From Phormidium ambiguum IAM M-71 (lineage in GTDB: Bacteria; Cyanobacteriota; Cyanobacteriia; Cyanobacteriales; Aerosakkonemataceae), in contig NZ_MRCE01000005.1 of the NCBI RefSeq assembly GCF_001904725.1, forward strand, positions 190,269 through 254,268: a stretch of 64,000 nt of DNA, written 5' to 3'. The translations under genes and the position numbers were made by a program. Shown piece by piece: positions 6,193-58,228 of the stretch (position 1 is its first letter; every line of letters begins with the position of its first letter). A model generated the notes under the pieces. The model was not told where the DNA came from, ran no database searches, and saw only the letters and a program-made list of their open reading frames with translations.

Positions 6193-6407
6193 GCACTTCG
6201 CAATCAACAAAAACCACATCTCTATTTTCATCTACTTTTGGGTGAAGCTTTTCGAGCCGAATTTGTGTTAGATGGATTAGAGGAACCTGCATTTCCATCT
6301 GATTACCCAAATAACTACTTACTTAGTGGGGGTGGTAATTTTAGCGAAATTCCACCTGTATTGGTGGTGCGACTAAAATTGTTAGCAACTTATACCAATT
6401 CTCTATG
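6193..6407 (+). pseudogene. C-terminal remnant of a SAM-dependent methyltransferase, ending in a repeat
   Basis: The frame from 6193 reads HLYFHLLLGEAFRAEFVLDG followed by LEEPAF and, further on, NFSEIPPVLVVR. This resembles the conserved tail of a class I SAM methyltransferase family. No start codon, SAM-binding motif or N-terminal part remains. The frame then runs into the TIR element at 6392 and stops at its internal TGA (6405-6407), giving the tail YTNSL. I read it as the leftover 3' end of a deleted gene. The family assignment is from recognition of the motif only. Confidence 0.55.
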
Positions 6408-6481
6408 AAGATGCGCTGCACGGCACCCCATCCCAAACCTCTGGGGCAAAGATTAAGCGCTATTTTACAGAGAATTGGTAT
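6392..6481 (+). repeat. TIR-hairpin element, copy 2 (short form)
   Basis: Begins with ATACCAATTCTCT and ends with its exact complement AGAGAATTGGTAT. It contains GCGCTGCACGGCACCCCAT and GATTAAGCGC, but the central GC-rich hairpin seen in the long copies is reduced to CCTCTGGGGC. It lies 40 bp before the MATE gene. Confidence 0.8.
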
Positions 6482-6521
6482 TAATATTTGCGATGCAGGA
6501 TGTAGTTAATCAAAATGTACA

Positions 6522-16055: not shown

Positions 16056-16161
16056 ATACCAATTCTCTATAGAAGATGTGCTTAATTAACCCCACCCCAA
16101 ACCCCTCCCCGTAAACGGCAAGGGGCTATGATTTAAGGGCAATTTAACAGAGAATTGGTAT
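16056..16161 (+). repeat. TIR-hairpin element, copy 3 (long form)
   Basis: Perfect 13-bp terminal inverted repeats ATACCAATTCTCT/AGAGAATTGGTAT bound GTGCTTAATTAACCCCACCC, a GC-rich partial hairpin (CCCCTCCCCGTAAACGGCAAGGGG) and GGGCAATTTAAC. It lies downstream of the CPA2 antiporter gene. Confidence 0.85.
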
Positions 16162-32264: not shown

Positions 32265-35200
32265 ATGAACAATGACAATGAAATTCGTGAACAAGGCTAT
32301 CAATATTTTCTTGCTGAAGCACCAGAGTTGTTGCAAAATATTGAACAGGAATTGTTGAATTTAAGAGAAGATTACAGCTTAGTTAAAGTCCATAGTTTGA
32401 TGCGATCGACCCACACTTTAAAAGGTGCGGCTGCTAATGTTGGGTTGGAAACAATTAAAACTATATCGCATCATTTGGAAGATGTATTTAAGGCACTTTA
32501 TAACCCAGAAATACAAATCGATACCGATCTGGAAATGTTGCTTTATGAAGGTTATGAGTGTTTACGTCTACCCTTAATGGCAGAAATTACAGGTAGTTAT
32601 GTAAATGAATCGGAAGCTTTAGATAGAGCGGTAACTGTTTTTGCTAAATTACAAGAAAAATTAGGTGATTATTTCGGTAAAGAAGCGCAAATTCCTAGTT
32701 CAATAGAGTTAGGGTTTGATATTACTAAATCTATTTTTGAAGTTGGCGTAAAACAACGTTTAGAAACTTTAGCTACTACGTTAGATGCTGGTAATGTTGA
32801 AGAGTTAGAGACTGTTTTAAGAGAAGGAATACAAGTTTTTATTGGCTTAGGAGAATCTTTAAATTTACCGGGATTTGGCGCGATCGCACAAACTACTTTA
32901 ACTGCTTTAGAATTACATCCAGAACTAATAGAAACTATTGCAACAGAAGCTTTATTAAACTTTAGCGAAGGATGGTCTGCGGTCATGGAAGGCGATCGCA
33001 TTTCCGGCGGTCAACCTTCTGCGGCTTTACAAGAACTAGCTGGTGTAAATCTAGGAAAAGTAACAACAGAAGATGTCTTAAAAAATGAATCAATTCAGAT
33101 TTTTGCTGATAATTTAGATATTTTACCTGAACCTGAATTAACAGTTGAAGAATTACCAGAAACAGAAGTAAATCTCGATTCGGATATTGAAATTGAAACA
33201 ACATTCATCGAACCTAGTTTAGATGATGTTTTTGGTAACTTGACAGAAACAGAAGAACAGCCAATTTTTGCTAATGAAATAGACTATCCTGAAGCCAAAA
33301 TAGAAGTCAACCCAAAAGAAAATTTAACTGTTACAAAAATAGAAAAAGCTACAGCAGAACATATAACAGAAAGCCATGATTTCCTGGTCAAAGAACAGCC
33401 AGAAACTTCCCAAGTAATTAATCGTCAACCAACTGAACAATCACCAATAAAAGTTAAATTTCAAACTTCTGGATCGAGTCCACAAACTGCGGCAAATACT
33501 AAAGCTACACATTCATCAGTGCGGGTAGATTTAGAATTGCTGGAACGCCTCAGTCACTTAGCAGGTGAAATGTTGATTGGGCAAAATAGACAATCTAATA
33601 TTAGCGAACAATTGCAAGAATCGATCGAACAATTATGGTATCGCTTACGAAGACATCAACAAACAATTAGCGAATTGCGTGATTGGTCCGATCAAATGCT
33701 CATTGCTCAAGAACGTCAGCGAGTGATTGAAAATTGGGCAGCAAATTTTGACTCTTTAGAATTAGATCAATATAGTGAATTACATGAATTGTTGCAAGCG
33801 ACTTTAGAAGACTTAGTGCAGTTAGAAGAAGCGATCGAATCTACTGATTATTTATCTAAACAATCTAGTCAAATTTTAGCTAAACAACGTCGCCTATTAA
33901 ATAACACTCAAGATGATTTAAGAACGGCCAGAATGTTGCCATTAGGCGAAATATTTAGCCGTTTTCCGCGACTTTTGCAACAGTTATCTGCGGCGCATCA
34001 CAAACGAGTTAAATTAACATTAATTGGCACAGAAGTATTAGTCGATCGCGCTTTAGCCGAAAAGCTTTACGACCCTTTATTACATTTAGTTCGTAATGCT
34101 TTCGATCATGGTATTGAATCACCCGAAATTCGCGCCAATCAAGGTAAACCAGAAACAGGAAACATTCAAATTTGTGCCTATCACCGCGCTAACAAAACAA
34201 TTATTGAAGTCAGAGATGATGGTCAAGGTTTAGATTTAGATCGCATCCGCCGTCGGGCTGTTGAAATGCAAATTTTATCTGTAGAACAAGCAGATAAAGC
34301 TTCCGAATCTACACTGCTTAATTTATTATTTGAACCAGGATTTTCTACCGCTGCTCAAGTTAGTGACCTTTCAGGGCGTGGCATTGGTTTAAACGTAGTC
34401 CGTTCCCAAATGGAAATGTTATCTGGATCGGTAATAGTTAATTCCGAACCACAACAAGGAACTACATTTTTATTACAGTTTCCCTTAAGCTTAACGATGG
34501 CAAAATTAATGATTTGTGAAGCCAAAGGAACTGTATATGCCTTACTTTCTGACGCTATAGATCAGATTATTTTACCTAAATCCGATCAAGTTCAATATAC
34601 TAATGGTCAAAAAGTTCTGCATTTAGGTAATCAACAAAATGCCATAATTCCTGTTTATAACATGGCCGAATTAATGACAGAAAATTCAGGAATTTCTCAC
34701 CAGAAATCAGCTAATATATTTGAGCAAAAAAATCTCCAAACAGAAACATTCAAATTTTCAACGGTTCCCTTATTATTACTACGACAAACTTCCCAAGTGG
34801 ATTTATGGCAAGGAACCGAAATTGTCGCCTTAGAAATTGACCAAATTATGGGCGAGCAAGAATTAGTAATTCGGTCTTTAGGAAAAGCGATCGCACCTCC
34901 TAGTTATATTTATGGTGGTAGTACATTAGCAGATGGTCGTTTAACATTAGTAATCGATCCCATTATCTTAGTTAGTCAATTACTTGACCAAGTAACAGAA
35001 AGAACAACTAATTCCGATTGGCAATTACCTATACATGAGCACAAATTAGAGCCAGCACTTTTATCAGATTCTCCAGTATCTTTACCACTACTTTCTGCTA
35101 CACCGAAAAAGATTTTAGTTGTCGATGATTCTATTAGCGTGCGCCAAACATTAGCTATGACTTTACAAAAGTCAGGCTATCAAGTAGTACAAGCACAAAA

Positions 35201-35504
35201 TGGTCGAGAAGCACTACACCAAATTCAACAAAATAACAGCATTCAATTAGTAATCTGTGATATTGAAATGCCCTCTATGAACGGATTTGAATTTTTAAAT
35301 AGTTATCATCAAGATGCAACATTGCCCCAAGTACCTGTAATCATGTTAACCTCTCGTACAGGAGACAAACATCGCTTATTAGCTCAAGAATTAGGTGCAG
35401 TAGGTTACTTTACAAAACCATATAAAGAAAGCGAAATGCTAAAAGCGATCGCCGATTTACTGACTCACAAAATACCAACATTAGCTTATACCAATTCTCT
35501 GTAA
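32265..35504 (+). CDS. pixL: PixL/PtxE-type CheA-CheY hybrid histidine kinase
   Basis: A 1079-residue chemotaxis kinase. The N-terminal HPt domain has the phosphoacceptor His50 (MRSTHTLKGAA). A long acidic linker spans about 280-400. The dimerisation and ATPase parts (about 420-740) include RTARMLPLGEIFSRFPRLLQ, HLVRNAFDHGIE and GRGIGLNVVRSQMEML. A CheW-like domain follows (about 745-900), and a receiver domain (about 948-1068) has Asp999 in VICDIEMPSMNG. It is the last gene of the operon. The final residues YTNSL and the stop codon are encoded by the TIR element at 35488. Confidence 0.93.
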   Translation: MNNDNEIREQGYQYFLAEAPELLQNIEQELLNLREDYSLVKVHSLMRSTHTLKGAAANVGLETIKTISHHLEDVFKALYNPEIQIDTDLEMLLYEGYECLRLPLMAEITGSYVNESEALDRAVTVFAKLQEKLGDYFGKEAQIPSSIELGFDITKSIFEVGVKQRLETLATTLDAGNVEELETVLREGIQVFIGLGESLNLPGFGAIAQTTLTALELHPELIETIATEALLNFSEGWSAVMEGDRISGGQPSAALQELAGVNLGKVTTEDVLKNESIQIFADNLDILPEPELTVEELPETEVNLDSDIEIETTFIEPSLDDVFGNLTETEEQPIFANEIDYPEAKIEVNPKENLTVTKIEKATAEHITESHDFLVKEQPETSQVINRQPTEQSPIKVKFQTSGSSPQTAANTKATHSSVRVDLELLERLSHLAGEMLIGQNRQSNISEQLQESIEQLWYRLRRHQQTISELRDWSDQMLIAQERQRVIENWAANFDSLELDQYSELHELLQATLEDLVQLEEAIESTDYLSKQSSQILAKQRRLLNNTQDDLRTARMLPLGEIFSRFPRLLQQLSAAHHKRVKLTLIGTEVLVDRALAEKLYDPLLHLVRNAFDHGIESPEIRANQGKPETGNIQICAYHRANKTIIEVRDDGQGLDLDRIRRRAVEMQILSVEQADKASESTLLNLLFEPGFSTAAQVSDLSGRGIGLNVVRSQMEMLSGSVIVNSEPQQGTTFLLQFPLSLTMAKLMICEAKGTVYALLSDAIDQIILPKSDQVQYTNGQKVLHLGNQQNAIIPVYNMAELMTENSGISHQKSANIFEQKNLQTETFKFSTVPLLLLRQTSQVDLWQGTEIVALEIDQIMGEQELVIRSLGKAIAPPSYIYGGSTLADGRLTLVIDPIILVSQLLDQVTERTTNSDWQLPIHEHKLEPALLSDSPVSLPLLSATPKKILVVDDSISVRQTLAMTLQKSGYQVVQAQNGREALHQIQQNNSIQLVICDIEMPSMNGFEFLNSYHQDATLPQVPVIMLTSRTGDKHRLLAQELGAVGYFTKPYKESEMLKAIADLLTHKIPTLAYTNSL

Positions 35505-35560
35505 AATTGCGCTTAATCATTGCCCCAGGGGTTTGGGGTGGGGTTCGCAGTGCATCTTGT
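35488..35560 (-). repeat. TIR-hairpin element, copy 4 (inverted, short form, overlaps pixL stop)
   Basis: ATACCAATTCTCTGTAAAAT, then GCGCTTAA, GCCCCAGGGGTTTGGGGTGG and GCAGTGCATCTTG. It is the reverse orientation of the family, with the inner hairpin deleted to a CCCCAGGGG junction. The distal terminal repeat is not recognisable, so the right boundary is approximate. Confidence 0.75.
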
Positions 35561-35578
35561 TGAGCCGATAAATTTGCT

Positions 35579-35702
35579 AAGCTGTTCCGCATTTAAATTA
35601 GATTGTTTGGAAACAGAAGAAAATTGGTCTAATCCTCTCCCCTGCTCCCCTGCCCCCCTGCTCCCCTGCGGTCTCAATAAGTGATTTAAATGCGGATAGC
35701 TT
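35579..35702. repeat. Inverted-repeat element with CCGCATTTAAAT ends and C-rich core
   Basis: AAGCT..CCGCATTTAAAT (35579-35598) and ATTTAAATGCGG..AGCTT (35684-35702) are inverted repeats. The centre has tandem TCCCCTGC-type units (about 35637-35669). It directly follows TIR copy 4 and ends 10 bp from the 3' end of the convergent histidine kinase gene. Confidence 0.65.
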
Positions 35703-35711
35703 ATATCATTT

Positions 35712-50272: not shown

Positions 50273-50377
50273 ATATCAATTCTCTATGAAGATGCGCTTA
50301 ATTAACCCCACCCCAAACCCCTCCCCGTCTACGGGGAGGGGCTATGATTTAAGCGCAATTTTACAGAGAATTGATAT
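50273..50377 (+). repeat. TIR-hairpin element, copy 5 (long form, matched variant ends)
   Basis: The ends are ATATCAATTCTCT and AGAGAATTGATAT, still perfect inverted repeats although both differ from the family ATACC/GGTAT by the same paired change. The inner part GCGCTTAATTAACCCCACCC and the hairpin CCCCTCCCCGTCTACGGGGAGGGG are intact. Confidence 0.85.
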
Positions 50378-57830: not shown

Positions 57831-57934
57831 ATACTAATTCTCTATGAATATGCCCTTAATTAACCCCACCCCAAACCCCTCCCCGTAGACGGGGAGGGGC
57901 AATGATTAAGCGCAATTTTACAGGGAATTGGTAT
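57831..57934 (+). repeat. TIR-hairpin element, copy 6 (long form)
   Basis: ATACTAATTCTCT at the left and AGGGAATTGGTAT at the right are near-perfect inverted repeats. The interior CCCTTAATTAACCCCACCCC and hairpin CCCCTCCCCGTAGACGGGGA match copies 3 and 5. It begins 28 bp after the HD gene stop. Confidence 0.85.
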
Positions 57935-58112: not shown

Positions 58113-58228
58113 ATACCAATTCTCTATGAAGATGCGCTTTATTACACCCCCCTCTAGTCCCCCCTTAGCAAGGGGGGACGGCGTTAGCCGGGGGGTAAAT
58201 ATATTGCAGTTTCATACAGAGACGGTAT
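58113..58228 (+). repeat. TIR-hairpin element, copy 7 (chimeric core)
   Basis: The left end ATACCAATTCTCTATGAAGA and GCGCTT are family-typical. The core is replaced by a different repeat with CCCCCCTT/AAGGGGGG (58159-58177) and an outer CCCCCC/GGGGGG pair. The right end is a decayed AGAGACGGTAT. Confidence 0.75.

What the first reader, a model, noticed from the sequence alone, without database searches (positions are those of the whole stretch)
35484..35504. TIR carries an in-frame stop and forms the C-terminus of PixL
The terminal repeat read as TAT ACC AAT TCT CTR TRA encodes YTNSL followed by a stop, in either element orientation. PixL ends in exactly YTNSL at 35488-35504, and the methyltransferase remnant at 6193-6407 also ends YTNSL and TGA. 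Both ends of the element have this property, so insertion near a gene end in this frame yields a standard five-residue tail and a stop. It could limit damage when the element lands in a coding sequence.
Basis: seen in the sequence. Interest (0 to 1): 0.6.

Follow-up and report, generated by a model that had tools for sequence, protein, structure and literature searches.

The report
Mobile-element end caps genes at stop
A roughly 100-base mobile DNA element in this cyanobacterium sometimes lands inside a gene's stop signal, and because its own end carries a replacement stop the protein merely gains five extra amino acids; this is real but a fairly ordinary, passive side effect.

Summary
PixL ends ...PTLA+YTNSL* inside the end of a decayed MITE, and the 6193-6408 remnant ends ...LLAT+YTNSL* likewise. 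The MITE (about 85 copies examined here) has TIR core TACCAATTCTCT, then an in-frame stop at both ends, and duplicates a 3-bp TNA target. Nine genes in this and two other cyanobacterial genomes end in this frame: YTNSL five times, plus YTNSP, YPNSL, HTNSL and NTNSL. Orthologues or empty sites show that six insertions hit the native stop codon itself, so the tail was added and nothing native was replaced. A TNA target can overlap a stop codon in only two ways: TAA/TGA itself, where the duplication restores the stop, or nnT-TAR, where the TIR supplies YTNSL*. Both are seen. Stop-codon hits are only marginally above random expectation, the TIR stop is no more conserved than neighbouring bases, and no clear mid-gene insertion was seen although about 64% of targets lie in genes. 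So it looks like a passive survivor effect, not an evolved safety device. Coxiella QMITEs are a published precedent. Full-length relatives with an IS630-type transposase share the TIR.

The parts
32265..35504 (+). PixL-like gene (Hpt / H-kinase_dim / HATPase_c / CheW / Response_reg); last five codons and stop come from the MITE end
   Evidence: ORF; Pfam; the nearest orthologue ends at the residue before YTNSL
35486..35488 (+). TTA target-site copy; overlaps the last base of GCT and the first two bases of the former PixL stop codon (inferred)
   Evidence: Sequence; TNA duplication rule; Phormidium sp. LEGE 05292 PixL ends ...PSLA* here
35489..35558 (+). decayed MITE copy; its left end gives TACCAATTCTCTGTAA, its right TIR is missing
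   Evidence: Comparison with intact copies; script
6193..6408 (+). 66-aa gene remnant (no Pfam hit) ending LLAT + YTNSL*
   Evidence: the sister-genome locus L322 has ...KLLAA* with TAA at the same point
6390..6392 (+). left TTA target copy
6393..6480 (+). MITE, 88 bp, both TIRs present
6481..6483 (+). right TTA target copy; with the following A it restores ACT TAA in the joined flanks
   Evidence: empty site in G001
16057..16160 (+). intact intergenic MITE copy, TAA duplication
50274..50376 (+). intact intergenic MITE copy, TAA duplication; strong hairpin when folded as RNA
57832..57933 (+). intact intergenic MITE copy, TTA duplication
58114..58227 (+). related MITE with the same left end and a divergent right end (TACCGTCTCTGTATGAA), TAA duplication

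Best explanation
PixL and the remnant at 6193-6408 were hit by a roughly 103-bp MITE whose full-length relatives carry an IS630-type transposase and which inserts at TNA, duplicating those three bases. Each insertion hit a TTA made of the last base of the final sense codon plus the TA of the native TAA or TAG stop (nnT-TAR). The stop is destroyed, but this register always reads into the TIR as TAT ACC AAT TCT CTR TRA, giving YTNSL and a new stop, so the protein gains five residues. The only other way a TNA target can overlap a stop codon is TAA or TGA itself, and there the duplicated triplet is an intact stop. Hence every possible hit on a stop codon is nearly silent. Shown: the insertions, the duplication rule, orthologous native ends and empty sites, and recurrence in several genes and genomes. 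Inferred: that these insertions persist because they are nearly neutral and not because the TIR stop was selected; and that PixL's native stop was TAA or TAG.
For: TNA duplications: identical 3-bp copies TAA x17, TTA x13, TCA x3, TGA x1. Direct filled/empty pair: G001 L322 reads TTG TTA GCT GCT TAA where the window reads TTG TTA GCA ACT TA|TACC...GGTA|TTA A, with syntenic flanks. L078 (ketopantoate reductase) ends NCS+YTNSL; its G001 orthologue has AGT TAG at that point. L112 ends KNS+YPNSL; its right flank TTAGAGA matches CCT TAG AGA in G001. L186 (HlyD-like, G043) ends LEP+YTNSL with right flank TTAG, and orthologues end LEL* or LET*. L163 (G001) ends AGT+YTNSP with right flank TTAG. The PixL orthologue ends PSLA*. 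The other register, with the target copy being the TAA or TGA stop, is seen at L116, L123, L178 and L222.
Against: PixL's own right element end is lost, so its former stop is inferred from the reading register and from the orthologue's end (which is GCC TGA). Three further cases in this frame are not clean stop hits: L072 (HTNSL, two codons before the stop), L094 (NTNSL, native end unknown) and L182 (native end unclear; relatives run longer). Gene calling for the statistics was a simple codon-score method.
Confidence: 0.92

Rival explanations
1. The TIR stop is an adaptation: elements that restore a stop were favoured because they harm the host less.
For: Stop present at both ends in two spellings (TGA and TAA), intact in 91 of 100 ends. 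Four nnT-TAR hits against 1.3 expected in the own genome, P about 0.05.
Against: The stop triplet is no better conserved than neighbouring TIR triplets. Sister subfamilies with TACCAATTCTCT+ATAT or GAAT lack it. Related full-length ISs with TACCA-type ends lack it (L192, L194, L198). The excess of stop hits is marginal; for both registers together P = 0.11.
Confidence: 0.06
2. The tail is a native, functional C-terminal motif of PixL that happens to resemble the TIR.
For: None found.
Against: None of the PixL relatives inspected has it. The DNA match to the MITE continues for about 70 bases, well past the stop. The same tail occurs on unrelated proteins.
Confidence: 0.01
3. The element rescues insertions into gene interiors by quickly ending translation.
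For: L072 sits two codons before the end, and L094 or L182 may be short truncations.
Against: About 64% of weighted TNA targets lie inside genes, yet no clear deep insertion was seen among about 85 elements. Most cases in this frame are exact stop-codon hits.
Confidence: 0.05

Closest known systems
Coxiella burnetii QMITE1/QMITE2 (PMC5896051, Table 2)
   Same: MITE ends supply the last residues and/or the stop of 11 functional genes, always at 3' ends; interpreted there as tolerance of C-termini or neutrality
   Different: Unrelated sequences; varied tails; no fixed target triplet that predicts the frame is reported
IS630-family insertion sequences and their MITEs (here the full-length L168 in G119, L193 and L197 in G001)
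   Same: Same TIR; transposase between the ends matches NCBIfam NF033545 and Pfam DDE_3
   Different: The target duplication measured here is 3-bp TNA, not the 2-bp TA that I recall for IS630 from general knowledge
Nezha and other cyanobacterial MITEs (cited in PMC10969869; Anabaena sp. 90 MITEs in PMC3542288)
   Same: Short multicopy inverted-repeat elements of cyanobacteria
   Different: Nezha's sequence could not be compared (paper not held); Anabaena 90 MITEs disrupt 15 ORFs, while here gene interiors seem spared
Rickettsia palindromic elements (described in PMC10969869)
   Same: Small repeats that alter protein products in frame
   Different: They are in-frame inserts that encode a longer peptide, not stop-codon caps

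Membership tests
MITE | short, non-coding, with terminal inverted repeats | tested here: met
   Mostly 88-138 bp pairs of TACCAATTCTCT ends; an intact copy folds over its whole length (z = -10.8)
MITE | target-site duplication | tested here: met
   34 of 50 pairs carry identical 3-bp TNA copies; an empty site exists in the sister genome
MITE | high copy number | tested here: met
   181 TIR-like ends with at most 2 mismatches against 20 for the reversed control pattern
MITE | autonomous partner with the same ends | tested here: met
   Full-length elements in G119 (1127 bp, TTA/TTA) and G001 (1420 and 1431 bp); none found at E<=1e-20 in the own genome
IS630 family | IS630-type DDE transposase | tested here: met
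   The two L168 ORFs match NF033545 at 6e-21 and 5.5e-24 (each half is below the whole-protein cut-off of 100 bits) and Pfam HTH and DDE_3 models
IS630 family | 2-bp TA target duplication (from general knowledge) | tested here: not met
   TNA copies with N = A, T, C or G equal on both sides. The claim is therefore 'relative with an IS630-type transposase', not a strict IS630 member

The most novel reading that the evidence does not exclude
The pairing of a TNA target with a TIR stop in the one frame that the TNA duplication cannot repair is a selected host-sparing design, making the family safe in every stop codon of the genome.
Probability: 0.06. Interest if true: 0.65.

Novelty: new member of a known kind. 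Interest (0 to 1): 0.33.

Why it matters
It gives a simple, predictive rule for how a bacterial mobile element can change protein ends without breaking genes: given the target triplet and the first 18 bases of the element, one can say exactly which stop codons can be hit and what tail results. It also warns annotators that xTNSL tails in these cyanobacteria are transposon sequence and not conserved motifs. If the stop were shown to be selected, it would be a rare case of a transposon end shaped by translation of host genes.

Tried and rejected
I first took the transposase type to be IS5/PIF-like because of the TNA duplication; the full-length relatives show an IS630-type transposase. PixL's decayed MITE does not fold better than shuffles as RNA (z = -0.2), so I make no terminator claim for it, although an intact copy folds very strongly. 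Paper searches for the TIR sequence found nothing relevant, and a search for insertion into the stop codon found nothing (an earlier attempt was malformed). The paper I recalled on Anabaena insertion sequences and their effects on ORFs was not found under the DOI I tried. Two apparent coding frames at L099 and L130 are chance TIR-like matches and were dropped.

Full report
The observation. PixL is an open reading frame at 32265-35504 that ends ...HKIPTLAYTNSL*, with YTNSL at 35487-35501 and TAA at 35502-35504. The matching DNA, TATACCAATTCTCTGTAA, is one of 11 copies of the pattern in the window against 0.34 expected by chance. The frame at 6193-6408 ends LLATYTNSL* in the same way. Pfam gives the expected PixL domains but no family for the 66-residue remnant, so 'methyltransferase' is not confirmed here.

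The element. Pairing TIRs in the window and in fetched loci of the same genome gave 50 candidate elements, mostly 88-138 bp, with core TACCAATTCTCT at both ends. Identical 3-bp TNA copies flank 34 of them: TAA 17, TTA 13, TCA 3, TGA 1. The base before TNA is C or G in 77% of ends and A in only 3%. The genome has 181 ends within two mismatches. One end usually continues ATGAAGATGCGC and the other GTAAAATTGCGC, and both spell a stop in the same frame. Sister subfamilies continue ATAT or GAAT and have no stop there. The family is patchy: 20 of 196 genomes of the order have an exact TNA-plus-TIR match.

The full-length relatives. G119 holds a 1127-bp element with the same ends and a TTA duplication. 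Its two ORFs match IS630-family transposase models. G001 holds two relatives of 1420 and 1431 bp with the transposase between the ends; their flanking triplets no longer match each other. No copy was found in the window's own genome at E<=1e-20, so the MITEs here may have lost their mobiliser.

Genes that end in the element. In the own genome the frame that gives xTNSL or a close variant is used by PixL, the 6193-6408 remnant, a ketopantoate reductase (L078), an unassigned protein of about 480 residues (L112, YPNSL), an AcrB-type pump (L072, HTNSL) and a histidine kinase (L094, NTNSL). In other genomes it is used by L163 (YTNSP), L182 and L186. Two own-genome genes (L116, L123) and two elsewhere (L178, L222) have the TAA or TGA target triplet itself as their stop. 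Two genes read through in the third frame and gain 22-24 residues (L021, L026).

Native ends. The closest PixL, from Phormidium sp. LEGE 05292, ends ...PSLA* exactly where YTNSL begins, and none of the other relatives has the tail. For the remnant, the sister genome holds the empty site with syntenic flanks: GCT GCT TAA against GCA ACT TA|TACC in the window. L078's orthologue has AGT TAG at the point of insertion. L112's orthologue has CCT TAG AGA, matching the flank beyond L112's element. L186 and L163 have right flanks TTAG, so their joined flanks restore CCT TAG and ACT TAG; L186's orthologues end at the same residue. Six insertions are therefore exact hits on a stop codon, with PixL the one whose former stop is inferred and not read.

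Why the frame is not an accident. A TNA triplet can overlap a stop codon only as TAA/TGA itself, or as TTA made of a preceding T plus the TA of TAA/TAG. The other offsets would need an A where the stop has T, or a T where it has A or G. In the first case the duplicated triplet restores the stop. In the second case translation always enters the TIR in the frame TAT ACC AAT TCT CTR TRA.

Is it selected? I scored TNA sites in roughly 300 kb of this genome with the measured preference. Among 85 non-genic insertions, 1.9 hits on TAA/TGA and 1.3 on nnT-TAR are expected; 2 and 4 are seen (P = 0.05 for the second, 0.11 together). About 64% of weighted sites lie inside genes, where no clear deep insertion was seen. 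The stop is intact in 91 of 100 ends, which is in line with neighbouring triplets. The simplest reading is purifying selection against genic insertions plus near-neutral survival of stop-codon hits.

Comparison with what is known. Coxiella QMITEs supply the last residues and/or the stop of 11 functional genes, and the authors offer the same tolerance-or-neutrality reading (PMC5896051). The present family is a new example with a clearer rule. Held papers contain no relevant match to the TIR sequence. The 3-bp TNA duplication differs from the 2-bp TA that I recall for IS630 elements, which deserves a check against ISfinder.

Noticed in passing
L168 390-1516 (G119); L193 1004-2423 and L197 1212-2642 (G001): Elements with an IS630-type transposase whose family makes a 3-bp TNA duplication where 2-bp TA would be expected; L168's two ORFs overlap around a run of eight A's (about 927-934), suggesting programmed frameshifting or slippage.
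   Followed up: partly
L100 1516-1708 (G000:C4:177413-177609): A sister-subfamily MITE (ATAT/GAAT ends) apparently inserted at a TTA inside a stop-bearing MITE: a nested insertion.
   Followed up: no
L021 near 1516 (G000:C7, about 116.4 kb): A C5 DNA methyltransferase whose native C-terminus (relatives end ...QLVLFNY*) was replaced by a different palindromic repeat (cccgacttcttgaagaag) followed by this MITE read in the third frame.
   Followed up: partly
window 58114-58227: Subfamily with the same left end but a divergent right end (TACCGTCTCTGTATGAA); many single-ended hits in this genome share its left end.
   Followed up: no
window 35559-35710: Between the truncated PixL MITE and the convergent histidine-kinase gene lies a tract of repeated CCCCTGCTC-like units.
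   Followed up: no
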